Assembly: GCF_035917335.1 (NCBI RefSeq)
Contig: NZ_CP109067.1
Location: 5,455,001 to 5,519,000 of the forward strand
Direction of reading: 5' to 3'
Length of the DNA stretch: 64,000 bases
DNA from: Micromonospora sp. NBC_01813
GTDB lineage: Bacteria; Actinomycetota; Actinomycetes; Mycobacteriales; Micromonosporaceae
Below the pieces are notes generated by a model. It had not been told where the DNA came from. It did no database searches and worked only from the letters and a program-made list of their open reading frames with translations. The translations under genes were made by a program, and so were the position numbers. Shown here piece after piece: positions 5,401-20,927 of the stretch. The number at the start of each line of letters is the position of its first letter. Position 1 is the stretch's first letter.

Positions 5401-6890
5401 TCGGCCCGTCGGGACTCGGCCGCCGCCACCCGGGCGGTGACCTCCCGGATCAGCTCCACCACCCGGACCGACACCGACTCGGCGGTGGTGCCGATGAACA
5501 GATAGCCGGTGCCGCCGTCCGGCTTGACGTGCGGCAGCCAGCGCAACCAGCCCCAGCGCTCCTCGGCGGACCGGTCGGTCAGTACGCAGATCCTCAGGTC
5601 ACGAGGGCTGTGCAGGACGGCGGCCTGGATGGTAAGCCAGCTGGCTTGGCGGGCTGCGGCCGGGCCCGCGAGCCCGACCACGCCGAAGGTACGTAGCGAC
5701 ACCGGCACCGGTACGTCGTCCAGCAGCGGCAGGGTGGTCCGCCGGTGCTCGTCCAACGCCGGGTCGAGCACCTGGACCGCCGACGGGACCGAGGCGGTGC
5801 CGACCCGCAGGTCCAGGAAGTCCGGGTCGTGGCGCCGCCGTTCCCAGAGCCGGTCGGTCGGCTGCACCGCGATCCGAGCCAACGTGGCCGGGTCGGGGTA
5901 GCCGTACCGGCGCTGCCGTTGCTCCTGCAGCACGGCGGCGTCGGCGTCGGCGCGAACCCGGGCCAGTTTCTCCTGGTATTCGCGCATCTGCTCGGCGAAC
6001 GACACCCGATTGCGCTTGCGACTGCCGAGCAGGGTGAGCAGGGCCGCCACCGGGGACAGGAAGGCCAGGAAGACGAAGCTCCACCGGCCGGTGATCAGAA
6101 TGCCGGCTAGTGCGGCACCGACCGGGGTGAGCAGCAGGGTGGCCAGCGGAATCGGGTTGCGGTCCGGCCGGCGCGGCTCGGTCGGCAGCTGGAACCGGCC
6201 GCCCTCGGCCGCTGGAACGAAGCGCGGCGGTCGGTTGAACTCCCAGGTGAGGTCCTCGGTCGACCGGCTCAACGGGGCCCGCGTCGGGATCTCGGCGACC
6301 ATTTCCAGCAGGTTGGCGCCGACCGCCAACTGTGCGCCTTCCGGCCACTCGACGTCGTTGTCGGCACCGTCGCCGTCGCCGTCGGTCGGCGTCTCGTCCG
6401 CGCCGTCCGCCGGGCGGTCCAGCAGGAACACCCGGTGGTCGGCCCGGACCAGCAGGTTCATCGCGACCGGCGGCGCCGGTGGGTCGAGCCGGACCCGCGC
6501 CGTGGGCGCGCTGCCGATCTGGTACTGGCCGGGCGTCAACTGGTAGGCGAGGCCGGCACCCGGCCCGCCGACGAGACGCAGCTCGACGGTGCCGGCCGGC
6601 GTCGCCGGCGCTGGGGTGGGCCGGCCGAGTCCCAGCTCGCCGCCGTCTTCGACGCCGGCGGCGGCGAGCGTGGCAGCGGGATCGACCGGCCGTCCCCGCA
6701 CGTACAGACTGCGGTCGGGTGCCCCGCTGCCGTACCTGGGGTCGGGTGCCCCGCTGCCGTACCCGGTTCCGTGGCCGAGCTCACCGATCCGCTCGGTGAG
6801 CTCGGCCACGGTGGCGACCGGCTCGGCCTCGACCATGAGCCGCAGCGGCGCCGGCCGTTCGGCCACCGCCACACTGACGTTGAAACGCAC
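2478..6890 (-). CDS. eccC: Type VII secretion FtsK/SpoIIIE-family ATPase (EccC/EssC type)
   Basis: About 1470 residues from a GTG with a GAGG ribosome site 8 nt upstream. The N-terminal ~90 residues look ubiquitin-like (LYVRGRPVDPAATL stretch). Next comes a degenerate FHA-like segment (residues ~110-230), two membrane helices (~247-292), and three FtsK/SpoIIIE cassettes. Cassette 1 has a canonical Walker A, GTTGAGKS, near residue 660 and a Walker B ending LVIDEFA. Cassettes 2 (GSSRSGRS, ~998) and 3 (GPPRSGRS, ~1289) have Arg in place of the Walker lysine, so they are probably binding or regulatory modules, as in known EccC proteins. It powers export of WXG100 substrates through the inner membrane. 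The N-terminal FHA-like region resembles EssC more than mycobacterial EccC. No eccB, eccD, eccE or mycosin gene lies in the window. Confidence 0.9.
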   Translation of the reverse strand: MRFNVSVAVAERPAPLRLMVEAEPVATVAELTERIGELGHGTGYGSGAPDPRYGSGAPDRSLYVRGRPVDPAATLAAAGVEDGGELGLGRPTPAPATPAGTVELRLVGGPGAGLAYQLTPGQYQIGSAPTARVRLDPPAPPVAMNLLVRADHRVFLLDRPADGADETPTDGDGDGADNDVEWPEGAQLAVGANLLEMVAEIPTRAPLSRSTEDLTWEFNRPPRFVPAAEGGRFQLPTEPRRPDRNPIPLATLLLTPVGAALAGILITGRWSFVFLAFLSPVAALLTLLGSRKRNRVSFAEQMREYQEKLARVRADADAAVLQEQRQRRYGYPDPATLARIAVQPTDRLWERRRHDPDFLDLRVGTASVPSAVQVLDPALDEHRRTTLPLLDDVPVPVSLRTFGVVGLAGPAAARQASWLTIQAAVLHSPRDLRICVLTDRSAEERWGWLRWLPHVKPDGGTGYLFIGTTAESVSVRVVELIREVTARVAAAESRRADPDQPEILVVLDGARRLRSLPGVIQLLREGPAVGVRVLCVEPEERLLPEECQAVVHTAGTAVTVRSGSGPQLTDIRADEPRPGWYEPVARGTAALRATGDAEDAVLPASARLLDVLALEPPTPPEIAARWLLRPRSTTAVLGIGLDGEFAVDLVRDGPHALIAGTTGAGKSELLQTLVATLAVANRPDEMTFVLLDYKGGSAFAECAELPHTVGMVTDLDTHLVERALTSLGAELRRREHLLAARGAADIVAYHEKRARDPMMPALPRLVLVIDEFASMVRELPDFVAGLVNIAQRGRSLGIHLVLATQRPSGAVTPDIRANTNLRIALRTTDPAESRDIIDAPDAGELSPRTPGRAFARLGFAALLPFQAGRIGGKRPAAGGAAQRGSVHAVEVPFFELGDPPAGPARPVGAAGGPEVETDLRVLVRAISAAARDAGIPAQPSPWLPPLADTVRLAELPALPGPTRPGDLGPVGYGVVDLPASQSREPLVFDVDRAGHLYVIGSSRSGRSQTLRTLAAALAGAHRAADLHLYGIDCGNGALLPLTGLRHTGAVVDRLQTERLDRMLDWLGGELTRRQGLLGEHGAADLAELRGGLPADRRPPHLVVLLDRFEVYEREFATFDNGRYLDRLIRVLRDGAAAGIHLVLAGDKTLGAGRYGSATEDKLVLRLNDRADYSMVGLGRKAVPPDQQPGRAVRVADAAEAQVAVLAADLSGAGQAGAIGALAADLAARDADLPPGQSPKQFGVLPEQLTFEEAVALRTPGRPALWALVGVGGDDLAGVGPDLGDNPTFLIGGPPRSGRSTALLTVARSLLDGGTGLLVLAPRRSPLRELAGCPGVVGVVADAAIRRGAFADLLGSITEKTGAVLIDDAELMVQSEIDNELLMLARGAAGDGWGLVIAGNAEGLTLSLANWLTQAKRNRAGMLLSPQSVTDGEVIGVRLPRGIVGRPPQPGRGYLHLGDGSLSAVQVPRTV
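6713..6763. repeat. Tandem 27-bp repeat inside eccC
   Basis: A 24-nt sequence at 6713-6736 recurs exactly at 6740-6763 (period 27 bp). It duplicates a nine-residue YGSGAPDP(R)-type unit in the N-terminal ubiquitin-like region of the ATPase without breaking frame. Confidence 0.8.
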
Positions 6891-6966
6891 GCTGCTGTCC
6901 TCTGTGCTCGATCCGGGCCGGGTGGGTGTTCGGCGACGCGGCGCAGCCCCGTCGCCTGGGCGCGGG

Positions 6967-7263
6967 TCAGCCGGGCAGCGAAGCGCCCAGCTGGTCGTCG
7001 GCCGAGGTGAACGCCTCACCGACCGCGCGCACGTACCGGCTGATCCCTTCCAGGCCCTGGTTGACCTGCTCGAAGCCGCGACCGAACTCCTCGAAGAAGG
7101 GCTGGAACCGCTGCTGGGCCGCGGGGGTGGAGTAGCCGTTGGCCAGCAGGGTCTGCACCTTGTTGCGGACGTCAGTCAGCTTGTCCTGCAGCTGGGTGAA
7201 GTCGTTGAGCAGTGCCGCCGAGGTCTGCTCGGTCTCGTCGGAGTTGACGGAGAAGGTGGGCAT
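6967..7263 (-). CDS. WXG100-family type VII secretion substrate
   Basis: 98 residues, the standard ESAT-6-like length, from an ATG preceded by AAGGAGCGACC. It is predicted as two helices joined by a turn at A-N-G-Y-S-T-P (residues 41-47), where the family normally has W-x-G. The Trp is replaced but the Gly is kept. The C-terminal helix carries FEEFGRGFEQVNQGLEGISRY, and a Y-x-x-x-V/G pattern could serve as secretion signal. It lies 76 bp upstream of eccC in the same direction, the usual arrangement for an Esx substrate encoded with its ATPase. Confidence 0.8.
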   Translation of the reverse strand: MPTFSVNSDETEQTSAALLNDFTQLQDKLTDVRNKVQTLLANGYSTPAAQQRFQPFFEEFGRGFEQVNQGLEGISRYVRAVGEAFTSADDQLGASLPG

Positions 7264-8998: not shown

Positions 8999-9865
8999 AT
9001 GATCTTCGGCAACGCTACAGATCTTGTGGAGCAGCTTGAGCGGCGTGCGGGCTATCTTGCCGGAAGCGGGCTGGCCGCGGCCGCCTTCCTCGCCCTGCAT
9101 GGGAATCGGCCGCTACTGCTTGAAGGTGCGCCGGGAGTCGGGAAGACGGCGTTCGCCGAGGCGATGTCCACCGTGCTCGATCGACCACTCGAGCGGCTTC
9201 AGTGCTATCCAGGTCTGGACGCGAGCCAGGTCCTCTACGACTGGAACTTCGCGGCGCAGATGCTGGCGCTGCGGGCAGCCGGGGCCGGTGACCACACCGA
9301 CCGGCTGCCCGAGCTGTGGGACGAGAAGTACCTCGTCGCGCGGCCACTCCTGCGGGCGCTGCGGGGTGCACCAGCGGTGCTGCTCATCGACGAGGTCGAC
9401 CGGGCCGAGGAGGACTTCGAGGCCCTGCTGCTCCAGGTACTGGACAAGTTCGAGATCACCATCCCGGAACTGGGGACCGTACGCGCGCAGGTCGCACCGT
9501 TCGTGGTCCTCACCTCCAACCGCACCCGGGAGCCGCACGACGCCATCAAACGGCGCTGCTTCTACCACTGGATCGACCATCCCGGGCCCGAGCTCGAGAT
9601 CCGCATCCTCCAACGCCACGTCGAAGGGCTCCCGCCGGACCTCGCCATCGCCATCACCGAGGCCATGGCCCAGCTCCGCCGGCTGGACCTGATCAAGCAG
9701 CCCAGCCTGGCCGAGACGATCGACTACGCGCGGGCGATTCACCGGCTCGGCGCCACCACACCGAACGACCCGGCAGCGGACGCGGCGATCTGCACCCTGG
9801 TCAAGCACCACGACGACGAAGCGCAGGTACGTCAGGTACTCGCGGGCCGACGGCACGACCGATGA
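8999..9865 (+). CDS. MoxR-type AAA+ ATPase
   Basis: 288 residues, starting at the ATG with GAGG 5 nt upstream. Walker A GAPGVGKT is at residues 43-50 and Walker B VLLIDEVDRAEEDF at about 127. Sensor-1 is LTSNRTREPHD, followed by the RRCFYHWIDHP segment typical of MoxR proteins. MoxR ATPases act with vWA proteins as chaperone-like remodellers, and the next gene is exactly that partner, starting inside this stop codon (ATGA). A perfect -35 hexamer TTGACA lies at 8898-8903, but I see no convincing -10. The gene heads a three-gene unit with vWA and CHAT genes, so its likely role is to gate or assemble the protease component. Confidence 0.88.
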   Translation: MIFGNATDLVEQLERRAGYLAGSGLAAAAFLALHGNRPLLLEGAPGVGKTAFAEAMSTVLDRPLERLQCYPGLDASQVLYDWNFAAQMLALRAAGAGDHTDRLPELWDEKYLVARPLLRALRGAPAVLLIDEVDRAEEDFEALLLQVLDKFEITIPELGTVRAQVAPFVVLTSNRTREPHDAIKRRCFYHWIDHPGPELEIRILQRHVEGLPPDLAIAITEAMAQLRRLDLIKQPSLAETIDYARAIHRLGATTPNDPAADAAICTLVKHHDDEAQVRQVLAGRRHDR

Positions 9866-11028
9866 CGGCCGACCCGCTCGCCCCGCTGGCCACCGGCTAC
9901 CCGCTCGCCCCGCTGGTCAGCTTCGCCGAGGCGCTGCGTACCGTCGGGTTGGCCGTCGACATCGACCGGGTCACCGCCGCCGCGGCGGCGCTCGGGCACT
10001 GGGGGGTCGCCGCTGGCGCCCAACCGTACTGGCCGCTGCGGGTGGCTCTGTGCCGCGACAGGACCGACGTACCCCTCTTCGACCAGGTGTACCGCGAGTG
10101 GTTCGGCGCACCGCCGGACGACGCCGGTCACACTGGACCGACGCTCGTCCCGGCCCAGTCCCGGCCCGCCGACGGCCGGCCGGGCACCGCCACACCGGTA
10201 CCCCGGGACACCGGCGCGTCGGTGCCCCGGAATGCCGGCGCGTCAGCGTCGCGGGACGCCGGCGGCGGGGCCGGCAACGCCAGCCGGCTGGCCAGCCGCG
10301 ACTTCGACGACCTGACCGAGGACGAGCTGCGGGAGGTGGCGACCTGGGTCGACCTGCTGCGACCGATGCCGACCCGGCGCACGATGCACCACCGCTCGAC
10401 CCGAACCGGCCGGATCGATCCGGCCCGGACGATGCGACTCATGCTGCGCACCGGCGGCGAGCTGGTGCGGTTGCGGCACCGCCGCCCGGCGGTACGCACC
10501 CGCCGGCTGCTCCTGCTCGTCGACGTCAGCGCGTCGATGAGCCCGTACAGCGACATGCTGCTGCGGTTCGCGGCCGCCGCGCTGGCCGCGAATCCGCGTA
10601 CCACCGAGATCTTCGCCGTCGGCACCGACCACACCCGTCTCACCCGGTCGATGCGCGGGCTCCGCCCCCGGGACGCGCTGCCCGCCGCCGGGCGGGTGCG
10701 CACCGGCTGGTCCGGCGGCACCACGCTCGGCGACGCGCTGAACGGCTTCCTACGCCGCTGGGGTGGCACCGACGTCGTCCGCTCGGCGATCGTGATCATC
10801 GGCTCGGACGGGCTCGAGCACTCAGACCCGACACCGATGGTCCGGCAGGTCCAGCGGCTCGCGGCCCTCGCCAAGGTGCTGATCTGGGCCAGTCCCGACT
10901 GCCACACCGACGGCGAGCATTCGCGCGACGCCCACATCGCCGACGCGCAGGCATCGGCCGCCCGGGTGGTGGGCTGCCACGACTACCAGGCGCTGCGCAG
11001 ACTCGCGAAGGTCGTCACCGATGCGTGA
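9862..11028 (+). CDS. von Willebrand factor A (CoxE-like) domain protein
   Basis: 388 residues, start overlapping the MoxR stop by 4 nt. The N-terminal ~150 residues are variable, with an imperfect Thr/Gly/Ala repeat (PRDTGASVPRNAGASASRDA) around 115-135. The vWA domain begins near residue 210. The MIDAS motif is intact: LLLVDVSASMS at ~218-228, the Thr in SGGTTLGDAL and the Asp in IIGSDGLEHSD. It therefore should bind Mg2+ and a protein ligand. It resembles the VWA/CoxE proteins that partner MoxR ATPases. The CHAT gene starts 8 bp before its stop codon, so the three products are probably made in fixed stoichiometry. Confidence 0.88.
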   Translation: MTADPLAPLATGYPLAPLVSFAEALRTVGLAVDIDRVTAAAAALGHWGVAAGAQPYWPLRVALCRDRTDVPLFDQVYREWFGAPPDDAGHTGPTLVPAQSRPADGRPGTATPVPRDTGASVPRNAGASASRDAGGGAGNASRLASRDFDDLTEDELREVATWVDLLRPMPTRRTMHHRSTRTGRIDPARTMRLMLRTGGELVRLRHRRPAVRTRRLLLLVDVSASMSPYSDMLLRFAAAALAANPRTTEIFAVGTDHTRLTRSMRGLRPRDALPAAGRVRTGWSGGTTLGDALNGFLRRWGGTDVVRSAIVIIGSDGLEHSDPTPMVRQVQRLAALAKVLIWASPDCHTDGEHSRDAHIADAQASAARVVGCHDYQALRRLAKVVTDA

Positions 11029-13405
11029 CCTCGAAGGACACGACGTCGCGGTGCGGCGGATCATGCGACGCGACGACCTGCTGACGCTTGCCGCCGCCGC
11101 CGACACGGCGGTGGGCATCGTTCGGATGCGCGAGGCGGAGGCCCTGACCGGGGTCGACGGCAGCACCCTGTTCGACCTCGCGCTACGCAGGCACATCAGG
11201 CTGGCGACCGGGAACGCCGGCTGGGCGGAGCAGGCACAGGCCTGGGATCACGCCGCGGTTCTCGTCCGGTACTGCGAGCTGGCCGGCACCGAACTGACCA
11301 GCCCGTACAGCGCGGTCGACATGCACGCCCGGTCGCTGCGCCTGCTCGAGGAGAACCAGACCCGGCCCGGCCTGCGCCCACTCGACCGGGACCTGACGCT
11401 GGGCGCGTTCAACCGCTACCACGCCGCCCGTGACCTGCGGTTGGCCGGCGACATCCAGGCAGCCCGCGACCTGGCCCGACGCTCACCGCAGGACTTGTAC
11501 GGCTGCGGCGCCGAGCCGCACATCGCGCACTTCCAGTACGAACTCGGCGCGACCTACATCGAGCAGGGCGATCCCCGGCCGTTCCGCCGCCAACTGCGGG
11601 AGCTGCGCGGGTACTGGGAGGGCGACCGGGCCAAGGCGTTCTCCACCCACCACCGGTTCGAGTTCATCGACGCGTTGGTCTCCTGGTACGCCGATCCCGG
11701 CAGCGACTGGGCCGGCCAGTGCTTCGCCGCCGCCATCGACCTGGTCGACACCGCCCACGACCACGCGGACGTCAGCGGCCACGACGGGGTGGACCACCAG
11801 GGCGTACGCGAACTGTCGCTGGTCCTCGCCGCCGCCGAGCACCTCGTCCTGACCGGTGGCGACCTCGACCGGGCGGTGGACCTGGCGTTGCGGGCGCTGG
11901 CCGCCGCCGAGCGGGTCCGGGCGCGCTGGCGGGTCATCGCCCGATCCCGGGCGCCACTGGCCGAGGCGTTCCACCGGGTCTACGCCGACGTCTGCCTGCT
12001 GGCCCACCGGATGGACACCGCACCGGCCGCCAGGCTCGGGCTCCGGGCAGCACTGTCCGCGAAGTCGACCGGTTTCGCCGCCCGGGTCCGCGACGGGTTG
12101 ACCTTCGACGACAACCCGTTGATCAGCAACCTGCTGACCCAGATCCTCGACGTCGAGAACCCCAGCCCCGGTGCCATGACCAGCACGGTCGCCAGCCGCC
12201 AGGCGCAGCTCGACGGGCTGCGTAAGGACCTGGAGGAGGCCGTCTCGCCGATGCTCGCCGACACCGTCCTCCCGCCGCCCACCGACCTGGACGACGTCGT
12301 ATGCGGGATCGGGCCACGGTACGCCCTCGACTACGTCGAACTGACCGACAATCTGGCGGTCCGGGCGTTCTTCCGCACGCTCATCGAGCCGGGCGGCGCG
12401 ATGACCTTCGACCGCTTCGATCCGGGCGACGATTTCCGGGTCCTGTTCGAGCAGGCCCGGGTCGGTCAGCTGACCGGCAGCCGCGACGTCGTCGACCCGC
12501 CGGTACCGGGTCTGCGCGACGACGGGCGGCTCGACTTCCGGACGCTGGCCGACCAGGTCCTGCCGCGACGGTTGACCGAGGAGATCCTGCCCGGCTGCAC
12601 CGTCGATGCGCCCGCGCAGCTGCTGATCTCGGCGCACTCGTGGCTGAGCCTCGTCCCGTGGGCCGCGCTGCGGACCGGCTCCGGCACCCGGCTGGTCGAG
12701 CAGGCCCTCATCTCGCAGAGCCCGGTGCTCACCTGCCTGTCCGGTGAGCTGCCACCGCCGGTGTCCGGTGCCGCCCTGGTCCGCCTGGTCGGCTCGGACG
12801 AGCCGGTGCAGATCGACGGACGGCCTCTTTCCGACCTCGACATCGCGCAGGAGCGGGCAGCGTGGGGTCTGCCGCCGGACACCGTCGGCGTCGCGCTCAG
12901 CAGCTGCGACCTCGACCTCGCCGCCGACCCCGACACCGGCGGCGGCGGTGTCCCGGTCCCGCACGGCGGCCGGTTCGCGGACGCGTTGCGCCAGCGCGGC
13001 CGCTGGCAGTTCCTGCACATCGCCGCACACGGCGGCGGCCAAGGCTTCGGCCAGTATCTGGCGCTGCCCGGCGAACGACTGTCGGCGGCCCGGGCGCTCG
13101 GGCTGCGCTGGCCGGAGTCGGTGCTGATGGCGTCGTGCCACGTCGGCCTGGTCCGCAACGATCACGGCGCCGAGCCGCTGAGCCTGGTGATGGCGCTGCT
13201 GACCGGGGGTGCCCGGTGCGTGGTGGCCGGGATCGACAGCGTCGACGACGCCGGCACCGGCCGGATGGCCGCCGCGATGGTGCGCGCCGCCCGAGCCCCG
13301 GACCCGGTCTCCATTGACGTCGCGCTACGCGACGCCCAGCTGGCGGAGCTCCGGGCGGGTACCCCGGAATCCGGCTGGGCGCTGCTCAGCGCGTACGTGC
13401 GATGA
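11021..13405 (+). CDS. CHAT-domain (caspase-fold) protease with long helical N-terminus
   Basis: 794 residues, ATG overlapping the vWA stop. Residues 1-~390 are almost entirely helical and could form TPR-like or VMAP-like repeats (for example FNRYHAARDLRLAGDIQAARDLA). The C-terminal ~280 residues form a CHAT domain with the catalytic His in FLHIAAHGGG (~670) and the catalytic Cys in VLMASCHVGL (~706), followed by a GARCVVAGIDSV strand typical of the fold. CHAT proteases of clan CD act as executioners in several bacterial immune systems; the co-encoded MoxR and vWA proteins are the expected regulators. It ends inside the oppositely oriented gene at 13386 (20-bp tail-to-tail overlap). The natural substrate is not evident. 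Confidence 0.85.
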   Translation: MRDLEGHDVAVRRIMRRDDLLTLAAAADTAVGIVRMREAEALTGVDGSTLFDLALRRHIRLATGNAGWAEQAQAWDHAAVLVRYCELAGTELTSPYSAVDMHARSLRLLEENQTRPGLRPLDRDLTLGAFNRYHAARDLRLAGDIQAARDLARRSPQDLYGCGAEPHIAHFQYELGATYIEQGDPRPFRRQLRELRGYWEGDRAKAFSTHHRFEFIDALVSWYADPGSDWAGQCFAAAIDLVDTAHDHADVSGHDGVDHQGVRELSLVLAAAEHLVLTGGDLDRAVDLALRALAAAERVRARWRVIARSRAPLAEAFHRVYADVCLLAHRMDTAPAARLGLRAALSAKSTGFAARVRDGLTFDDNPLISNLLTQILDVENPSPGAMTSTVASRQAQLDGLRKDLEEAVSPMLADTVLPPPTDLDDVVCGIGPRYALDYVELTDNLAVRAFFRTLIEPGGAMTFDRFDPGDDFRVLFEQARVGQLTGSRDVVDPPVPGLRDDGRLDFRTLADQVLPRRLTEEILPGCTVDAPAQLLISAHSWLSLVPWAALRTGSGTRLVEQALISQSPVLTCLSGELPPPVSGAALVRLVGSDEPVQIDGRPLSDLDIAQERAAWGLPPDTVGVALSSCDLDLAADPDTGGGGVPVPHGGRFADALRQRGRWQFLHIAAHGGGQGFGQYLALPGERLSAARALGLRWPESVLMASCHVGLVRNDHGAEPLSLVMALLTGGARCVVAGIDSVDDAGTGRMAAAMVRAARAPDPVSIDVALRDAQLAELRAGTPESGWALLSAYVR

Positions 13406-14807
13406 ACGGCTCCTCCGACGGGGGCGAGGACAGCTGTCGGGCCTGCTCCAGCGCCCAGCGCACCCGGTCGAGGCGGCCCGCCTCTTTGGAGTGCTGATCC
13501 AGCGAGAACCATCGGATCCGCCAGGTCTGATAGCCCTGGTCGGCCGGCCCCAGTCCGCGGCACCGGATCAGCGACCAGATGAACATCGGCATCGTCGCCG
13601 CGCCGAGCGCCCGCTCACGACCGGACCCGCTCGGGCCACCGAGCCAGCTGGACATGGCCTCCACGGCGGCGTCGTCGAGCGGGTTGAGCGCGAGACAGTC
13701 CGGGCCGTCGGTACGCCGTGACGGAAGGTCGAACCCGGGTTTGAGCAGCGCCAGGTTGAGCCGGACGTGCACCAACTGCCGCTGGAAGCCTTGGTCCATA
13801 CCGGATCCACCCGGCACGTCCTCCTCGATGGCCGCGTACGCCCGGGTGAACCGGTCCAGCACGTCCTTTTCCCACAACTCCCAGGATTCGAACTGCCGTG
13901 GCTGGCTCCGGCCGCAGCGCTGCATCGCCGGCCGGATCGCCAGCAGCAGCGACGCCGCCCGGGCCGTCATGATCCCCGGGTTCTGCAACGCGGTCTGCCG
14001 GGTGAGCCGGTGCTCGTCGACCTGGTCGGCGAACCCGAACTCGTCCCGGATCTGGCACGCCGTGTCGATCGCCCGTTCCCCGACCGCCACGCCGTCGGTC
14101 AGCTCACGGAACATCCGCTGAATCCACCGCCGCTCCTCTGCCGGTGACCGGTCCGGCCCCGCCGACTCCTCGGCGGACGACCGGTCCGACGGGGCCGGGT
14201 CGTCGGACGGATCCGACCAGCGGGCGATCACCCGCTCGGCGGTGCGGCAGGCCGTGCCGGTCTCGGCCAGCGCCAGTTGAAGGAACACCTCGTCCAGCTG
14301 GAGCCGTAACAGCCGGGTGCCCTCGCCGGTGCCGAGACTGTCGCCAAACTCGGCGTACTTCTTCTGCGCTTCGCGGTGCAGCGTCCAGGCCGCGTCGTAG
14401 CCCTGGTCCGTGTCCCGTTTGGACTCGGCCAGGGCGAGGGCCCGCAACGCGCCGAGAGCCCGCGGGGCGAACTCCGGCCACGGCAGCCCACGGGCACAGT
14501 CCGTGATCCGCCGGATCAGGTCGAACTCCCGCTCGCTCCGTTGGCGGACCTCCGGCGCGGTGGCGGCGCGGTCGAACGACGCCTCAATCCGCTGGACGCA
14601 GTCCCAACTCGTCTCGTAGATCAGCCAGCCCATCAGCGGGAGCCGCTCGGCCAGCTCGGCGGGCGGCAACTGGGTCGCCCGGGCGGCCAGGACGTCGCGG
14701 TACGCCTGGACGTCCGCCTCGATCCGGTCGACCAGTTCGCCGTCGGTGCGGCACTGCTTGGCGCGCAACGCGACGCACAGGTCGCGCAGCTCCTGCGGGG
14801 TCATCAT
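13386..14807 (-). CDS. Unknown helical protein, copy A (paralogue of 16735-18087)
   Basis: 473 residues. The ATG at 14807 overlaps the caspase stop (ATGA). I do not recognise the family. It is paralogous to the gene on the other side of the caspase: both share QLPPAEL, GWLIYETS, LPWPEFAPRALGA, LALAETGTACRTAE, an RMFR(E/Q)L(T/S)DG segment, NP(G/A)IMT, PAMQR and a C-terminal MP(M/H)FI(W/R)S. It looks all-helical with no membrane segment. An insert near residue 210 with two near-identical Ser/Glu/Asp/Pro-rich stretches (SSAEESAGPDRS, then SPAEERR) is absent from the paralogue. Position and co-translation suggest a partner, substrate, inhibitor or scaffold of the caspase; this is inference only. 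Confidence 0.7.
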   Translation of the reverse strand: MMTPQELRDLCVALRAKQCRTDGELVDRIEADVQAYRDVLAARATQLPPAELAERLPLMGWLIYETSWDCVQRIEASFDRAATAPEVRQRSEREFDLIRRITDCARGLPWPEFAPRALGALRALALAESKRDTDQGYDAAWTLHREAQKKYAEFGDSLGTGEGTRLLRLQLDEVFLQLALAETGTACRTAERVIARWSDPSDDPAPSDRSSAEESAGPDRSPAEERRWIQRMFRELTDGVAVGERAIDTACQIRDEFGFADQVDEHRLTRQTALQNPGIMTARAASLLLAIRPAMQRCGRSQPRQFESWELWEKDVLDRFTRAYAAIEEDVPGGSGMDQGFQRQLVHVRLNLALLKPGFDLPSRRTDGPDCLALNPLDDAAVEAMSSWLGGPSGSGRERALGAATMPMFIWSLIRCRGLGPADQGYQTWRIRWFSLDQHSKEAGRLDRVRWALEQARQLSSPPSEEPFIARTR

Positions 14808-16738
14808 CGTGGCCACTGCTCCAAACTCGGTGTCATCTCGAAGTCGATCCCGTGGATCTCGTACCGCACCCCGTCCGACCAGTCCGGATCGACCTCGCGG
14901 GAGCCGCCGGCGGCGATCTGGTCGATCATGTCCCGCAACCGGAAACCGTGGCCCGGTGAGCGGCTCCGCACGATCCCGGGCTGCTCCAGCGCGGCGAGGC
15001 TCTGTGGCGCGGAGGTGAGCACCACCAGGATCGTCTCGGTCCGGGCGTGGGCCGGGTCGAGCCGGGCCGGCCAGGACAGCTTCACCCCGGCCAACTGCTG
15101 CCGGGCGTCGTTGCGGCCGTACGTGTAGGCGCGGTGCGGTGGCAGCAGTCGGCCGCTCGGGGTGCCCCGCATCAGCAGCGAAACCCGACCGGAGAGACCG
15201 ATGTCCAGCATCGACACGTACACCGGCACATCCGCCCGGTTGTGTACCGTCACGTAGATCCGCCGGCCCGGGGTCAGCGGGGTTCCCGCGACAGGTGGCG
15301 GATGCTGCGCGCCGTCCACGACCAGTCCCCACTCCACCGCGACGTCGGCCTCCAGCGAAGCGGTCGGATCAGCGATCAGGCGGCGCAGCTGTGTCGCCTG
15401 GGCGTGAATCAGCACCGCGCGTGCGAGGTCGGCGAAGCCTTGGGCGTCGCTCGGATATGGCGGGTGAAGCGGCCCGACACGGTCGCAGAGAACGACACCG
15501 CCGGCCTCGTCGAAGCGGATCTCGGCCGTCCACTCCTCGCCGGGTTCGGCCGGCCGAGCCAGCACCGTCGTCCGGAGCACCGCCAGCACCTGTTCGTTGC
15601 GCGGGTGGTCGACCGGCACCCGCACCGCGATCTGCGGCGCGGTCACCCTGGTACGGAACGCCCGCGCGCCAGCCGGCACCGCCGACCGGCCGGTCGCGAA
15701 GGTCACCGGGCCCTCGACGGACGTCTGCGCCACCTGGTCGATCATCAGGTCGGCGACCCGGTGCGCCCGGTCCTCGGCGGCCCGACCCGGCGGCATGACC
15801 ACGAACTCGTCGCCGGCCTGGACCCGCAGCAGGACGGCGGCGTCCAGTCTGACCCGGCCGGGTTCGCCCAGCGGCGTCACCGGCAGGGAGTTCAGCAGAT
15901 CCACCTCCTCGGTGGTGAACAGCAGCCGGTCGGCCGGTCCTTCCGCCTCGGGACGCTGCTCGAACATCAGCCCGGCCACCCGGTAGCGGATCTGGTCGAG
16001 CAGCGCGGCCCAGGTCACCGGCGTCTCGCCGGCTTCGGCGAGCGCCCGGCACAGCTGGTCGGTGAGGACGCCTCGACAGGTTCCTTCTTCGGTCAGGCGC
16101 TCGAACGCGCGCTGACCGGGAGCGCAGGCCACAATGCGTACCGCGTCGGGATTGCTCTCGGTGGGAACCAAGTTCAACGGCAACGACATCCGGTCGAGGT
16201 GTTCGCGGACCCAGGCGTACGGGGCCGATCCGCGCAGCGCCCGCAGACGCAAGCCTCCGTCGCGGGACATCAGCCCGGAGTGGCAGCAGTCAAGAATCAC
16301 CGTGACGTTGCGGGTCACCGCGACCAGCCGCGACTGCAGGATGGAAAGCTCGGCGGCGGCGATCCCGCGGAAGTCGTCGGCGGTCGACTCGCCGTAGTCG
16401 ATCGGCACGATGTACTGCAGGTCGGCCGGCCGCAGCGGCCCGGTCGGCAGCGGACCGGTCGGCGGCGGCCCGGCCGGCAGCGGCCCGGCCGGCAGCGGCG
16501 GCGGCCCGGTCGAGCCGCCATGGCCGGAGTAGTAGACGACGACGGCGTCACCCGGTCCCACATCGTCGATCAACTTCTCGTACGCCGCGAGGATCGCGGA
16601 CCGCGTCGCCTCCGCCGGTGAGCACTCCCGAACGACGAACCCGCGCGCCCGCAGGGCTTCCGTCATCACCACGAGATCGGGCCGCACGCCCTGAAGTCCG
16701 TCGTAGTCGGAGCCGATGAGCAGTGCCAGCCGGTTCAC
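14804..16738 (-). CDS. Caspase-like (peptidase C14) protein with DUF4384-like C-terminus
   Basis: 644 residues from a GTG that overlaps the upstream stop (GTGA) and gives a start directly before the first strand, LALLIGSDYDG. The catalytic dyad is visible: His73 in VVVYYSGHGG and Cys152 in VTVILDCCHSG. Directly after the His strand is a low-complexity Gly-Pro-Leu-Pro insertion (residues ~79-103). Residues ~260-480 are a strand-rich region of unknown type. The C-terminal ~170 residues carry a DUF4384-like module (GRRIYVTVHNRADVPVYVSM, then LDIGLSGRVSLL and TILVVLTS), a frequent partner of prokaryotic caspases. It has no signal peptide, so acts in the cytosol. Expected activity is cleavage after a basic or acidic residue of an unknown target on activation. 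Paralogous unknown genes lie on both sides. Confidence 0.87.
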   Translation of the reverse strand: MNRLALLIGSDYDGLQGVRPDLVVMTEALRARGFVVRECSPAEATRSAILAAYEKLIDDVGPGDAVVVYYSGHGGSTGPPPLPAGPLPAGPPPTGPLPTGPLRPADLQYIVPIDYGESTADDFRGIAAAELSILQSRLVAVTRNVTVILDCCHSGLMSRDGGLRLRALRGSAPYAWVREHLDRMSLPLNLVPTESNPDAVRIVACAPGQRAFERLTEEGTCRGVLTDQLCRALAEAGETPVTWAALLDQIRYRVAGLMFEQRPEAEGPADRLLFTTEEVDLLNSLPVTPLGEPGRVRLDAAVLLRVQAGDEFVVMPPGRAAEDRAHRVADLMIDQVAQTSVEGPVTFATGRSAVPAGARAFRTRVTAPQIAVRVPVDHPRNEQVLAVLRTTVLARPAEPGEEWTAEIRFDEAGGVVLCDRVGPLHPPYPSDAQGFADLARAVLIHAQATQLRRLIADPTASLEADVAVEWGLVVDGAQHPPPVAGTPLTPGRRIYVTVHNRADVPVYVSMLDIGLSGRVSLLMRGTPSGRLLPPHRAYTYGRNDARQQLAGVKLSWPARLDPAHARTETILVVLTSAPQSLAALEQPGIVRSRSPGHGFRLRDMIDQIAAGGSREVDPDWSDGVRYEIHGIDFEMTPSLEQWPR

Positions 16739-18087
16739 CAGATCCCGCCGTCCGGGTCCCGCCCCAGCAGTCGCTCGATGTCCTGCCACCGGTCCGTCCC
16801 GTACCGATCGAGCGTGGCCCAGTCATGCCGCCACTGTTGATAGTTGGCGGTGGCTCCGGCGTCGTCGCGGCATGCCTCGACTGAGCGGATGAAGTGGGGC
16901 ATCGAGGCGCAGCCGACAATGCTCGCGTCGCCGCGTACCCCGCCGCCCGCGCCGGCTGGTGCGGCCAGCCAGCGCGACATCGCCTGGGCTGCTTCGTCAT
17001 CGAGTCGGCGCAATGTCAACGTGTCATCCACGATCAGTGGCTCTTCGAGCGTCTCCGACGCGGTCAGCAACGCCAGGTGCAGGCAGAACTGCACGATCGT
17101 GCGCGCGTGGTCATCGAGCAGCGGAATGAGGGTCGCGTCTGCCCGCTCGGCCGGGCGGACGAGGAAGGCCAAGGTCTCGTGGAACCGCTGGCGTAGCGAG
17201 GACATGAAGTCCGGCCAGGTGTCGTAGCCGCGCGGGCGCATACCGAGACGCTGCATCGCCGGGCAGAGCGAGTACATCAGCAGCAACGCCCGGCAGGTCA
17301 TGATCGCCGGGTTGCGGAACCCGGTACGCAGGATGAGCCGGTCCTCGGTGATCACATCCACGAAGCCGTGCTCCTGGTGGATCCCGTCGGCGATGTCCAA
17401 CGCCCGCCTTCCCACCTCGGCACCGTCCGAAAGCTGCCGGAACATGCGGGGAATCCAGCGGTCGGCCTCCCGCCGCTCGGTCGCCACGTCTGCGGCACCC
17501 CAGTTCTCGAGCCAGCGGCCTATCGTCTGTTCGGCGGTACGGCAGGCAGTGCCGGTCTCGGCGAGAGCCAGTTGCAGCAGGACCTCGTCGAGGTCGAGGG
17601 CCAGGCGCGCGAACGCCGGGTCGCCACCGAGACTGTCCCGGTACGACTGATGCTTGGCACGTACCTCCTCGTGCAACAACCACGCCGCGTCATAGTCGTT
17701 CCACTTCGACCTGACCAGCGCCAACGCCCGGATGGCGCCCAGGGCGCGCGGCGCGAACTCCGGCCACGGCAGCGATCTGGCGGCGGTCGCGAGGCGCATG
17801 ATCAGCGCCGCATCGGCCTCGGACGCGCGCCGCGCCTGCTCCGACAGCCCGTCGATCTCGGCCCGGACGTTCCACAGCAACATCAGGGAGGTCTCGTAGA
17901 TCAACCAGCCCGTCAGCCGCAGCCGGTTTCTCAGCTCCGCCGGTGGCAGTTGGGTGGGCTCGGCGCGCAGCCGATCGCGGTACTCCCCGGCGTGTTGCTC
18001 GATCCGGACCACCAGCGCCTCGTCGACGACGACCTTCTTCTGCCGGACGGCGATACAGAGCTGGCGGAGGGCATCACTTTCGATCAT
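16735..18087 (-). CDS. Unknown helical protein, copy B (paralogue of 13386-14807)
   Basis: 450 residues from the ATG at 18087, preceded by a GAGAGG ribosome site. It shares its full length with copy A: an N-terminal ALRQLCIAVRQKK helix, QLPPAEL, GWLIYETS, LPWPEFAPRALGA, LALAETGTACRTAE, RMFRQLSDG, NPAIMTCRA and PAMQR. Residues around 395-405 form a Gly/Ala linker (AAPAGAGGGV). No catalytic motif or membrane segment is seen. It sits between the PP2C gene (57 bp upstream) and the caspase (overlapping GTGA), so the four genes form one operon. The retention of two diverged copies on either side of one caspase gene suggests a heteromeric assembly, or a sensor and its inhibitor. Confidence 0.7.
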   Translation of the reverse strand: MIESDALRQLCIAVRQKKVVVDEALVVRIEQHAGEYRDRLRAEPTQLPPAELRNRLRLTGWLIYETSLMLLWNVRAEIDGLSEQARRASEADAALIMRLATAARSLPWPEFAPRALGAIRALALVRSKWNDYDAAWLLHEEVRAKHQSYRDSLGGDPAFARLALDLDEVLLQLALAETGTACRTAEQTIGRWLENWGAADVATERREADRWIPRMFRQLSDGAEVGRRALDIADGIHQEHGFVDVITEDRLILRTGFRNPAIMTCRALLLMYSLCPAMQRLGMRPRGYDTWPDFMSSLRQRFHETLAFLVRPAERADATLIPLLDDHARTIVQFCLHLALLTASETLEEPLIVDDTLTLRRLDDEAAQAMSRWLAAPAGAGGGVRGDASIVGCASMPHFIRSVEACRDDAGATANYQQWRHDWATLDRYGTDRWQDIERLLGRDPDGGIW

Positions 18088-18144
18088 GGTCCTCTCGACC
18101 TCCCGTGTGGTGCAGACCTTCGACACCTACTGACGGACGGCCAC

Positions 18145-18897
18145 TCAACCGGGGAAGGTGCAGAGGGCGGCAGTAGCATCGTCATGCTGCTTACGCCCTC
18201 CTGGTAGCGGCCCGGGCGACTCCGCCGCCCGTACCGCGTCGAGGACGTCGCGCACCGGGCCCCCGACGGCGAGATCGATCACCTGCCGCCAGCTGTATCC
18301 GAAGTGGTCGACCAGCCGGGAGACGCCGTCCGTGCAGGCGAACACCGACGTGGTCGTTGCCTTCGGCCACGCCCCGGTGAGCGCTTCCCCGGCAGCATCC
18401 GGGACGGTCGAGGCGACCCAGAAGCCGCCCGGGCTGTTGCGCCGCTCGGCGACCTCCGCGCGGGTCAGCCCCCGCATCGCGGCCGTCCGGTCATCGGTCA
18501 CCACCTGACTGATCTCGCCGCCAGGGCCGGTCAAGATCAACGCCGAGTCACACAGCACCAGGTAGTCGACGATGTCGGGGCGTTCGCGCAGCAGCACAAC
18601 GGTAGAGGATGGACTTTCCGGATGGGACAGATCACAGCTGCCCCCGTGCGCGGTGCGCACCGCAGTGATGGCATCGGCGAGCACCTCCGTCAGCCCCGGG
18701 GTACCCGGGGCGTTCAGCCGCTGCGCCAGCGCCGCGCCCAGGGTCCGGACCAGCCACACCGGGTCGTGTACGCATCCGGTACGCACCTGCGGTGGGGAGG
18801 TGACTCCATCCAGAACGATCAGGAAGTCATTGCCCGCGAACACGAGATCTTCATTCCGGCGACCCGGTGCCGGCGAGGTCGCAAACCTGACATCCAT
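18145..18897 (-). CDS. PP2C-family Ser/Thr protein phosphatase
   Basis: 250 residues; the ATG at 18897 has a near-perfect GGAAGGAG ribosome site. All PP2C metal-site motifs are present: RNEDLVF near the start, FLIVLDGVTS, SSTVVLL, a VLCDSALIL strand, ACTDGVSRL and a final DDATAAL. It should therefore be an active Mn2+/Mg2+-dependent phosphatase. It leads the minus-strand unit of caspase and paralogue genes. No Ser/Thr kinase is encoded in the island, so it must oppose a kinase elsewhere or act on a phosphorylated partner inside the system. PP2C enzymes occur as regulators in several NTPase-protease conflict systems. Confidence 0.85.
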   Translation of the reverse strand: MDVRFATSPAPGRRNEDLVFAGNDFLIVLDGVTSPPQVRTGCVHDPVWLVRTLGAALAQRLNAPGTPGLTEVLADAITAVRTAHGGSCDLSHPESPSSTVVLLRERPDIVDYLVLCDSALILTGPGGEISQVVTDDRTAAMRGLTRAEVAERRNSPGGFWVASTVPDAAGEALTGAWPKATTTSVFACTDGVSRLVDHFGYSWRQVIDLAVGGPVRDVLDAVRAAESPGPLPGGRKQHDDATAALCTFPG

Positions 18898-19002
18898 CTG
18901 ATCTCCTTCCGGGCGCGGCAATTCGCCTGCGTCCGGGCGCCGCTCAGGGCCTCTATTATCGGTGGCGACCGAGCGCCTCACACGATGCCGAGTGGAGGAT
19001 TC
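18898..19002. promoter_or_regulatory. Divergent promoter region between PP2C and YdcF-like units
   Basis: This 105-bp gap separates two oppositely directed starts, each with a strong ribosome site (18901-18908 for the minus gene, GGAGG at 18994-18998 for the plus gene). A plus-strand TATTAT at 18954-18959 is a plausible -10 box; I see no good -35. A shared promoter region implies linked expression of the two units. Confidence 0.4.
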
Positions 19003-19992
19003 ATGTCCGGCTTCGCACCTGTGCCACTTCCCGCTTGCGAGCCGAATTTCCAGCCGGACCTGGTAGCCACCGAGATCGAGGCGTGGATCTCCGCGGAGCC
19101 GGTACGAGCCCTCGTCGGCAGGTTCGGCGGCACCCTGCCGACCACCGATCTCGGCGGGCTGCTGACCTGGTTGGACGACTTCTCCGGCGAGCACTGGGAT
19201 TTTCGGAAGAAGACCGCTGGGGTCGAGCGTGACCAGGTCCGGGCACCCGAGTTCGACGCGCCGACAGCCCGTCTGGTGACGGACGCGGCGACCGCCCTGC
19301 AACTGGTCGAGCCGCGGATGCCGCCGCACCGGAACTACGACCACCTGCTCGTCCTCGGCGGCCTGGGCCGGGCCTGCCTGCAGCGCACCGAGTACGCCGC
19401 GCACCTGATCAGCCAGGGTGTGGTCGCCGTCCCTGAGGTGGCCGCGCTGGGCAGTTTCCGGCCGCTGACCGCAGCGGAAAGGGAGCTGCCCGGCCTCCCC
19501 GACAGCGGATACGAGGTGGACGCGATGGACGTCGGCCTACGCGGCGCGTTCCACCTCGCCGAGCCCGGGCTGCTCGAGTCGTCGGACGACCCGGTCGACC
19601 ACAGTTCCTGGTCGGTGCGCACCTACCAGTCCCCAACGGGCGTACGGGCGCACGTGCTCGCCGCACCGTCGAGCGACCCGGCGAACCGCCGGGCCAACAC
19701 CCCCGACACCTACGAATTCTGGGCGCAGCGGGTCAAGCTCCGCGCAGTCGACCGGATCTTGGTGGTCACCTCCCCGATCTATGTGCCGTTCCAACACGCC
19801 GATGCCCTACGAATGCTCGCCCTGCGGTACGGCTGCGGCATCGACACGGTCGGCTTCGACCCGGGCCGGGTGAGCGTGCCACTCGCACCCGGTGCCACCA
19901 ACCCGGACCGCTACCTGCAAGAGATTCGATCCGGGATTCTGTCCATGATGAGGCTGTACCGGGCGATCGCCGATCCCGTGGCCGTACGATGA
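19003..19992 (+). CDS. YdcF/DUF218-like protein 1 (unknown activity)
   Basis: 329 residues from the ATG with GGAGG 5 nt upstream. The pattern resembles the YdcF/SanA/ElyC (DUF218) fold: a first strand YDHLLVLGG, then an R-x-x-Y-A-x-x-L-I helix, an LGSFRPL-x-x-x-E segment, an RRANTPDTYEFWAQ segment in place of the family T-x-x-N-A, and an ILVVTSPIYVPFQHADALRML strand-helix. DUF218 proteins bind small molecules, some with S-adenosylmethionine-like ligands, but their reactions are mostly unknown. The assignment is from motif order only. It is paralogous along its whole length with the next gene, whose ATG overlaps its stop. Confidence 0.55.
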   Translation: MSGFAPVPLPACEPNFQPDLVATEIEAWISAEPVRALVGRFGGTLPTTDLGGLLTWLDDFSGEHWDFRKKTAGVERDQVRAPEFDAPTARLVTDAATALQLVEPRMPPHRNYDHLLVLGGLGRACLQRTEYAAHLISQGVVAVPEVAALGSFRPLTAAERELPGLPDSGYEVDAMDVGLRGAFHLAEPGLLESSDDPVDHSSWSVRTYQSPTGVRAHVLAAPSSDPANRRANTPDTYEFWAQRVKLRAVDRILVVTSPIYVPFQHADALRMLALRYGCGIDTVGFDPGRVSVPLAPGATNPDRYLQEIRSGILSMMRLYRAIADPVAVR

Positions 19993-20927
19993 CCGACGCC
20001 TATACCGTCGCGCCGCTACCGTCGTGCCCCCCGGGCGGTGACCGGGCCGGCGTGGCCGAGGGAATCGCCGCGTGGCTGGGATCGGCCGCCATGACCGCCC
20101 TGCTGGACGCGTTCGGGTTTCGGCTGCCGACTGCCGGCCCGCTCGCCGACCGGCTCACCGACGCCGCGCGCTTCTCCGCCCGGTGGGACTACCGCAAGGG
20201 AATGGAACGGCATCAGGCGGTCGGCGAGACGTTCGAGCCGGAACTCGACGCGCTGATCCGGCAGGCCACGGCCGCCCTCGGCCTGGCTGACTGCTCGACG
20301 CCCGCCGCGCAGCGGTACGACCATGTCCTCGTCCTCGGTGCTGGGGTCCGCACGATGCTGGCCCGGGCCGACCTCGCCGCGACGGTGCTCCGGGCCGGCA
20401 TCGGAGTGTCTACCGTCGTCGGGCTGGGCAGCACCCGGCCGCTCGTGGGTCACGCGGAGACGACCCGCGAGCTGGGGCTGCGGCCATGTCCCACCGAGGG
20501 CGACGCCGTGGAGGCGTCGCTACGCCGCGAGTTCGGCCTCGGCGAACCGACCAGTCGCCGAGACGGCGACGGCTGGTGGGTGCGGGAGCATGCCTATGCT
20601 CGGCCGCCGGTGTCCGTGCTGGCCGCACCGTCGACCCGGCCTGGAATGCGCGCCAACACGGCCGACACTCTCGTCGGCTGGGCCGATCTGCTGCCCGGCG
20701 CCGTCCGCGGCGCTCGGCTGCTGCTGGTCACGACCGACATGTTCGTGCCGTTCCAGCACTGTGACGCGGTACGGGTGCTCGGCCTCGGCTACGGCGCCAT
20801 GATCGAGACGATCGGGTTCGCGACCGCGACCAGCCGCTGGGTGCCGCCCGCCGACACGTTCGAAGTCCTGCAGGAGGTCCGCTCGGCGATCCACTCCATG
20901 CAGCTGCTCTACGCCGCGGTGGACTGA
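19989..20927 (+). CDS. YdcF/DUF218-like protein 2 (unknown activity)
   Basis: 312 residues; start overlaps the previous stop (ATGA). It shares YDHVLVLG, the LGSTRPL-x-x-x-x-E turn, MRANTADTLVGWADL and LLLVTTDMFVPFQHCDAVRVL with its neighbour, so the pair arose by tandem duplication. It differs in a shorter middle and a Thr-rich C-terminus (FATATSRWVPPADTFEV). A fixed pair suggests a heterodimer. Its end overlaps the end of the murD-like gene by 19 bp. If the two units are part of the same system, these proteins could make or degrade a nucleotide-like signal; this is speculation. Confidence 0.55.
   Translation: MTDAYTVAPLPSCPPGGDRAGVAEGIAAWLGSAAMTALLDAFGFRLPTAGPLADRLTDAARFSARWDYRKGMERHQAVGETFEPELDALIRQATAALGLADCSTPAAQRYDHVLVLGAGVRTMLARADLAATVLRAGIGVSTVVGLGSTRPLVGHAETTRELGLRPCPTEGDAVEASLRREFGLGEPTSRRDGDGWWVREHAYARPPVSVLAAPSTRPGMRANTADTLVGWADLLPGAVRGARLLLVTTDMFVPFQHCDAVRVLGLGYGAMIETIGFATATSRWVPPADTFEVLQEVRSAIHSMQLLYAAVD

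What the first reader, a model, noticed from the sequence alone, without database searches (positions are those of the whole stretch)
8999..20927. Two caspase-fold proteases, MoxR/vWA, PP2C and two unknown paralogue pairs in one island
Nine tightly packed genes in three units include a CHAT protease and a separate C14 caspase, with intact catalytic dyads in both (His/Cys near residues 670/706 and 73/152). Every pair of same-unit genes overlaps or is within 60 bp, and the two protease units end inside each other (13386-13405). MoxR-vWA plus protease triads are a known class of ternary conflict systems, but a combined CHAT triad, caspase unit with a phosphatase and duplicated helical partners, and a divergent YdcF-like pair is not an arrangement I recognise. 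A two-step protease cascade with phosphorylation control is a plausible new immune or programmed-death system.
Basis: partly seen in the sequence, partly recalled or inferred. Interest (0 to 1): 0.9.

Follow-up and report, generated by a model that had tools for sequence, protein, structure and literature searches.

The report
Modular bacterial caspase and CHAT-protease gene island
An actinobacterium carries one compact set of genes that couples two caspase-like proteases to an ATPase switch through an unclassified helical protein; relatives swap the second protease for other modules, so it looks like a rare, modular, predicted immune or self-killing system rather than a fixed nine-gene machine.

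Summary
In detail: nine tightly packed genes (8999-20927) encode MoxR, vWA, CHAT, a C14 caspase between two helical paralogues, PP2C and two Rossmann-like paralogues, with intact dyads H670/C706 (CHAT) and H73/C152 (C14). But the nine are not one conserved set. I compared 20 loci found through the helical protein, which I call TCAP and which no Pfam model describes. A CHAT gene lies next to TCAP in 19 of 20; MoxR-vWA occur in 12, the Rossmann-like gene in 13, PP2C in 7, a C14 or C14-like domain in 6; all nine occur in the window alone. The congener L045 lacks just PP2C. Beside or fused to TCAP the partner varies: caspase, alpha/beta hydrolase, or the CATRA protein of published CATRA systems. 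C14 and CATRA share no locus, and C14 is confined to one CHAT clade, in which two TCAP groups occur. Best reading: a variant related to CATRA systems, in which a MoxR-vWA-gated CHAT protease controls an exchangeable effector held by TCAP, here a caspase. The cascade, cell death and any antiphage role are inferred.

The parts
8999..9865 (+). MoxR-type AAA+ ATPase; Walker A GAPGVGKT, Walker B LLIDE
   Evidence: Pfam AAA_5 2.6e-14; best NCBIfam match MadB, 229 bits against a 475 cut-off; motifs; DNA homology to the congener L045 starts exactly at 8999
9862..11028 (+). vWA (CoxE-like) co-chaperone, MIDAS-type motif DVSAS present
   Evidence: Pfam VWA_CoxE 3.3e-37; motif
11021..13405 (+). CHAT protease with a long N-terminal half (TPR-like by analogy only; no TPR model matched); dyad H670/C706
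   Evidence: Pfam CHAT 1e-18, residues 507-779; dyad invariant in 19 of 19
13386..14807 (-). TCAP-B: copy of the unclassified helical family, directly 3' of the caspase gene (4-base overlap)
   Evidence: no meaningful Pfam match; group B support 95/91
14804..16738 (-). C14 caspase (644 aa, dyad H73/C152) with a C-terminal region of about 370 aa without a Pfam match
   Evidence: Pfam Peptidase_C14 2.1e-17, residues 3-265; alignment A4
16735..18087 (-). TCAP-A: second copy, directly 5' of the caspase gene (4-base overlap)
   Evidence: AlphaFold2 pLDDT 91.7, mostly helical with a small beta hairpin; group A support 100/99
18145..18897 (-). PP2C phosphatase, accessory; missing from the same place in the congener L045
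   Evidence: Pfam PP2C_2 4.1e-10; break in DNA homology between 18151 and 18905
19003..19992 (+). Rossmann-like (read from the strand-helix order of its paralogue) alpha/beta protein 1
   Evidence: alignments A3 and A6; no Pfam match at its cut-off
19989..20927 (+). Rossmann-like alpha/beta protein 2
   Evidence: AlphaFold2 pLDDT 93.6, alternating strands and helices; no PDB match with E under 0.001

Best explanation
The island is one modular, protease-controlled conflict (predicted immune or programmed-death) system related to CATRA systems. Its core is the CHAT protease plus TCAP, an unclassified helical scaffold family. MoxR and vWA act as an ATP-driven switch that holds or remodels the CHAT complex; on a trigger the CHAT protease is released. 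TCAP carries an exchangeable effector. Here two TCAP paralogues flank a C14 caspase and keep it inactive until CHAT acts on TCAP or on the caspase, after which the caspase degrades cell proteins. In relatives an alpha/beta hydrolase, or the CATRA protein with CATASP, takes that role. The Rossmann-like pair is a likely ligand sensor and PP2C an optional regulator. Shown: gene content, dyad conservation, the CHAT-TCAP association, swapping of modules, and fusions of TCAP to a caspase-like domain and to a hydrolase. Inferred: switch, cleavage order, inhibition by TCAP, death, target.
For: CHAT-TCAP link: 19 of 20 loci and the same 8 of 150 family genomes. TCAP next to a co-directional abutting partner or in one chain with it: C14 in window, L045 and L061; [quoted passage not shown] alpha/beta hydrolase abutting in L065 and L073 and fused in L076; CATRA 40 bases 5' of TCAP in L074 and L075. 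C14 and CATRA never together: 6, 6 and 0 of 20 (Fisher p 0.11, so not significant by itself). C14 in 5 of 7 loci of one supported CHAT clade (99/100) and 0 of 12 outside (Fisher p 0.002, not corrected for kinship); the two supported TCAP groups A and B consist of loci of that clade and L064. Dyads kept. At least 5 of 10 fetched CATRA loci without TCAP have a CHAT neighbour.
Against: No phage or defence test exists; the better PADLOC matches are generic 'caspase' (4e-13) and 'chat' (2.7e-5), with weak ones to IetA, DrmD and TRIP13. MoxR-vWA were not found in 8 of 20 loci, so the switch is not essential to the core (L076 is a contig of only 9298 bases, so its absences may be cut-offs). L046 and L072 have two TCAPs and no C14 beside them; L046's genome has a C14 far away. 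In L062 and L047 the C14 gene is not next to TCAP. The caspase-like domain of L064 is not recognised by Pfam and lacks both catalytic residues. How common kin of MoxR-vWA are outside such loci is unknown, as that search failed. No substrate or cleavage site is known.
Confidence: 0.5

Rival explanations
1. Two or three independent gene sets merely lie side by side (MoxR-vWA-CHAT; TCAP-C14-TCAP with PP2C; Rossmann-like pair) and do not work together.
For: C14, PP2C and the Rossmann-like family occur in many genomes without TCAP; there is no C14 in 14 of 20 TCAP loci; the units are on opposite strands.
Against: TCAP, which abuts the caspase gene on both sides, is the near-constant partner of CHAT (19 of 20); C14 presence follows the CHAT tree; the congener keeps the same order over the whole stretch except PP2C at about 87% DNA identity.
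Confidence: 0.2
2. A developmental or stress-proteolysis module: MoxR-vWA and CHAT mature or turn over a host protein complex and C14 does controlled cleavage during differentiation; not immunity.
For: MoxR-vWA pairs are tied to assembly of complexes and to the CoxD-CoxE pair (PMC7159879, passages seen); most carriers seen by name are Actinoplanes, Micromonospora, Plantactinospora and Dactylosporangium, genera known to me as mycelial.
Against: Patchy presence with module swapping: strong matches in 8 of 150 family genomes, none in 5 of 7 genomes of its own genus, 5 of 396 other genomes of the order sample, 0 of 393 others of the class sample (partly the same genomes).
Confidence: 0.2
3. A toxin-antitoxin-like unit in which TCAP is an inhibitor of whatever effector lies next to it, and CHAT only degrades TCAP.
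For: TCAP abuts or is fused to caspase-like, hydrolase and CATRA partners; in the window the gene pairs overlap by 4 bases.
Against: Fusion into one chain is more usual for scaffolds than for inhibitors (general knowledge); two TCAP copies flank one caspase; some loci have TCAP with no evident effector beside it (L046, L071, L072).
Confidence: 0.1

Closest known systems
[quoted passage not shown] seen as cited in a passage of PMC8195603, in a legend of PMC12657218, and in the Pfam names PF20269, PF20270, PF20271)
   Same: CHAT protease beside CATRA/CATASP: 6 of 20 homologous loci carry both next to an orthologous CHAT (Pfam; L051 CATASP and L075 CATRA by my own profiles only)
   Different: The window has no CATRA or CATASP; it has C14 plus a second TCAP, and a MoxR-vWA pair. 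CATRA is mostly found without TCAP: 3 of the 25 CATRA-bearing family genomes have the two side by side
MoxR-vWA ternary systems (VMAP, iSTAND, iSTAND2, TERNS3; PMC7159879 and PMC8195603, passages seen)
   Same: MoxR and vWA pair with a third component; peptidases in the systems; one TCAP homologue (L064) is fused to a caspase-like domain two genes from a trypsin-VMAP gene
   Different: No VMAP match in the window; the third gene is a CHAT protease
MADS MadB/MadC (NCBIfam)
   Same: Best-named kin of the ATPase and vWA proteins
   Different: Scores far below the curated cut-offs (229 of 475 and 41 of 600 bits)
EACC1-caspase two-gene systems (PMC7159879, passages seen)
   Same: C14 resembles the EACC1-associated caspase model (35.8 bits)
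   Different: Under the 140-bit cut-off; none of the nine proteins was named EACC1
TPR-CHAT Csx29 of type III-E CRISPR (Craspase, PMC9729208; start of abstract seen in a search listing)
   Same: CHAT protease with a long N-terminal half, controlled by a partner
   Different: No match of the window CHAT to NCBIfam models, Csx29 among them, and no PDB sequence match of the family profile up to E 0.01

Membership tests
CATRA conflict system | CHAT/caspase-fold peptidase joined to TPR repeats | tested here: inconclusive
   CHAT met; no TPR model matched the N-terminal half
CATRA conflict system | CATRA-N/CATRA-C protein | tested here: not met
   None among the nine proteins and no CATRA-N match in the window's genome; present in 6 of 20 homologous loci
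CATRA conflict system | CATASP small protein | tested here: not met
   None among the nine proteins
MoxR-vWA ternary system | Adjacent MoxR ATPase and vWA protein | tested here: met
MoxR-vWA ternary system | Published third component VMAP | tested here: not met
   No VMAP match in the nine proteins; the model is in this Pfam
MoxR-vWA ternary system | Published third component iSTAND, iSTAND2 or TERNS3 | not tested
   Not checked that the libraries hold models for these; none was named
MADS | MadB and MadC above the curated cut-off | tested here: not met
   229 of 475 and 41 of 600 bits
EACC1-caspase system | EACC1-associated caspase above the cut-off | tested here: not met
   35.8 of 140 bits
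EACC1-caspase system | Adjacent EACC1 gene | tested here: inconclusive
   No protein was named EACC1; not checked that the libraries hold such a model
CHAT peptidase | His-Cys dyad | tested here: met
   H670 and C706 invariant in 19 of 19
C14 caspase | His-Cys dyad | tested here: met
   H73/C152; kept in 9 of 10 compared
DUF218/YdcF | Pfam DUF218 above the cut-off | tested here: not met
   13.2 of 27.6 bits; 2 of 21 members at E about 0.09
Antiphage defence system | Protects against phage | not testable with these tools
   needs an experiment

The most novel reading that the evidence does not exclude
TCAP is a new effector-docking scaffold family of actinobacterial conflict systems, and in this clade it builds a true two-tier protease cascade: a MoxR-vWA-gated CHAT initiator that activates a dedicated executioner C14 caspase held between two TCAP paralogues, a bacterial counterpart of initiator and executioner caspases.
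Probability: 0.25. Interest if true: 0.85.

Novelty: new variant of a known kind. Interest (0 to 1): 0.55.

Why it matters
Few bacterial caspase-fold proteases have known activators and targets (general knowledge). This locus gives a defined pair of CHAT and C14 with a near-constant unclassified partner that, in relatives, is attached to a caspase-like domain, a hydrolase or a CATRA module. That turns a general 'peptidase cascade' prediction into a testable one, and links CATRA systems, VMAP ternary systems and caspases through one protein family.

Tried and rejected
A fixed nine-gene system was rejected: all nine occur in 1 of 20 loci. The YdcF-like naming was rejected. TCAP as a hidden kin of CATRA or of the CHAT protein found no support (hhalign probability 0.2 and 1.6 per cent). 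TCAP as kin of a solved structure: no PDB sequence match up to E 1; Foldseek best E 0.004, the 50 listed matches being mainly designed helical repeats, TPR and other helical chains with query TM-scores of 0.10-0.27, so only 'helical repeat' can be said. TCAP copy A on plasmids or phages: no match at E 1e-5. Left out of the co-occurrence count: the two marginal TCAP matches (G051, G071; E 6.5e-4 and 2.1e-4, about 113 aa; both genomes have a near full-length C14; not followed up) and the 21 genomes with only short CHAT matches. The hypergeometric figure printed ignores kinship and is not used. In the first look only 4 candidates per genome were scored, so some distant copies may be missed.
Full report
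What is there. The window lies at 5,455,001-5,519,000 of a one-contig 7.63 Mb genome. The nine genes are real and in the stated order. Pfam names MoxR (AAA_5), vWA (VWA_CoxE), CHAT, Peptidase_C14 and PP2C_2; the two helical proteins have no meaningful match and the last two proteins reach no cut-off. The family is probably Micromonosporaceae: three contigs of its family sample have the lengths of named contigs of Plantactinospora alkalitolerans, Micromonospora sp. HM5-17 and Dactylosporangium siamense (L048, L049, L047), and Plantactinospora belongs there.

A near-constant core. In 150 genomes of the family, the helical protein has strong matches (E at or below 5e-81) in 8 and marginal ones in 2; the CHAT protein has near full-length matches in the same 8 and only short matches in 21 more. 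I call the helical family TCAP (TPR-CHAT-associated protein; my name). Adding the order sample (own genome and 5 of 396 others), seven regions, five and 7 of the 11 loci (the other four are repeats) gives 20 loci with the window. The class sample added none (0 of 393 others). The loci were compared with home-made profiles, whose seeds came from the window and L045-L051, so for those eight the assignment rests on BLAST and Pfam. All 20 were found by TCAP, so TCAP in 20 of 20 is by construction. A CHAT gene is next to it in 19 of 20; L064 is the exception.

Variable modules. Among the 20 loci: MoxR plus vWA in 12; the Rossmann-like family in 13; PP2C in 7; C14 in 6 (window, L045, L047, L061, L062 and, as a degenerate domain, L064); CATRA in 6 (L048, L049, L051, L067, L074, L075), each with a CATASP gene (Pfam; L051 CATASP and L075 CATRA by my profiles). 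L050 has a CATASP-bearing protein of another make and a ThiF gene. Alpha/beta hydrolases lie directly 5' of TCAP in L065 and L073 and are fused to it in L076; in L070 a DUF900 hydrolase lies on the other side of CHAT. L064 is a 1593-residue frame: an N-terminal part without a Pfam match, a caspase-like domain seen by my profile (345 bits) but not by Pfam, with both catalytic residues lost, then TCAP; before it lie an AAA/MoxR-like gene (70 bits) and a trypsin-VMAP gene. C14 and CATRA share no locus (0 of 20; Fisher p 0.11). Absences mean 'not in the stretch fetched'; L076 is a contig of 9298 bases. All nine proteins together occur in the window alone; L045, from the congener G093, has all but PP2C.

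Island history. DNA homology between window and L045 starts at exactly 8999, breaks between 18151 and 18905 (the PP2C gene), and runs on to 22431. Of 7 genus genomes, 2 have TCAP. All 7 have the Mur-ligase-like right neighbour; three of the five without TCAP were fetched, and there only this neighbour matches the window. So the left edge is sharp, PP2C is an accessory, and the island is patchy.

Trees. In the CHAT tree (19 rows) a clade with support 99/100 joins the window, L045, L046, L047, L061, L062 and L072. C14 is present in 5 of these 7 and in 0 of the other 12; CATRA in 0 of 7 and 6 of 12 (Fisher p 0.002 and 0.04, not corrected for kinship; at least three changes each on the tree). In the TCAP tree (24 rows) copy A groups with rows of L045, L061, L046, L072, L062 and L064 (100/99), copy B with rows of L045, L046, L047 and L062 (95/91). 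How the two groups join the rest is not resolved, so they reflect an old duplication or a second acquisition, not a recent copy. L071 is a long branch in both trees and L076 in the CHAT tree.

Structures. TCAP copy A (24 sequences): pLDDT 91.7, long helices with a small beta hairpin; no PDB chain with E under 0.001. The Rossmann-like protein 2 (21 sequences): pLDDT 93.6, alternating strands and helices, no PDB chain with E under 0.001; 'Rossmann-like' is my reading of that order. No Pfam family is matched by more than 1 of 24 TCAP members at E 0.1. C14 has metacaspases and an uncharacterised bacterial protein (GSU0716) as solved kin; the CHAT profile has none up to E 0.01.

Relation to what is known. 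[quoted passage not shown] CATRA-N occurs in 25 of 150 family genomes and lies next to TCAP in 3 of them (G036, G092, G113). Ten CATRA loci without TCAP were fetched. My CHAT profiles rang in 3 of 10; Pfam, on large neighbours of 9 of the 10 (none taken from L120), found CHAT in 5 (L119, L122, L123, L125, L128). So CHAT plus CATRA is a recurring theme and our loci are a TCAP-bearing branch. The window fails the CATRA membership test, having neither CATRA nor CATASP. I therefore file it as a related variant, not as a CATRA system. In PMC7159879 (passages seen) the MoxR-vWA pair is proposed as a threshold-setting switch, and alpha/beta hydrolase-caspase pairings are mentioned for VMAP systems; the word CHAT does not occur in its main text. 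PMC10907252 (passages seen) proposes instead that a vWA sensor signals through MoxR to the peptidase, and describes a CHAT-TIR protein beside ternary-system parts; PMC10910872 (passages seen) speaks of vWA-MoxR-VMAP near CRISPR loci. Searches of the held library (and 91, which listed 20 of 331) showed no paper whose title or abstract start describes this arrangement, and CATASP gave only unrelated titles. The 2020 paper could describe it; I could not read it.

How it most likely works. Shown: gene order, dyads, CHAT-TCAP association, exchangeable partners, fusions. Inferred: MoxR-vWA gates CHAT; CHAT cleavage frees an effector docked on TCAP; in this clade the effector is C14. Immunity is inferred from kinship and patchy distribution only.

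Against. MoxR-vWA were not found in 8 of 20 loci; some TCAP loci show no effector; C14 is not always next to TCAP; the Rossmann-like family (74 of 150 genomes), PP2C kin (120 of 150) and C14 kin (27 of 150 at E 0.001, 17 with matches of over 530 of 644 residues) are found outside such loci. Of those 17 genomes, 13 have no strong TCAP match (two of the 13 have the marginal one).

Noticed in passing
L077 3816-9304 (own genome, about 5.287 Mb); L079 1520-7159; also L080, L081, L083, L084: A C14 caspase with the same body of about 640 residues plus about 200 more follows a co-directional gene of about 1000 residues in 6 of 8 further C14 loci fetched; in the two that were scanned (L077, L079) that gene is AAA_16-TPR-LuxR type. 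Looks like a separate regulator-caspase unit.
   Followed up: partly
L078 5577-8289 (own genome, about 6.747 Mb): A shorter C14 protein lies beside a YcaO gene.
   Followed up: no
L047 1003-3740: A second CHAT gene and an unknown 240-residue gene follow the C14 gene; this CHAT weakly matches the Csx29 model (23.8 of 300 bits).
   Followed up: no
L061, L062, L064, L070: Actinoplanes italicus DSM 43146 carries four TCAP loci of different make-up.
   Followed up: partly
L050 14832-16880: A ThiF/E1-like gene is divergent from MoxR in a TCAP locus.
   Followed up: no
L070 13762-15581: A DUF900 hydrolase gene and a 2H phosphoesterase gene lie next to CHAT.
   Followed up: no
G051:C23:4153-4485 and G071:C1:5047121-5047456 (L011, L010): Two marginal TCAP matches of about 113 aa inside frames of about 799 codons, in two genomes of one genus; could be distant kin.
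   Followed up: no
window 2478-7019: A large protein on the minus strand looks like a type VII secretion ATPase, by reading and recall only; not scanned.
   Followed up: no
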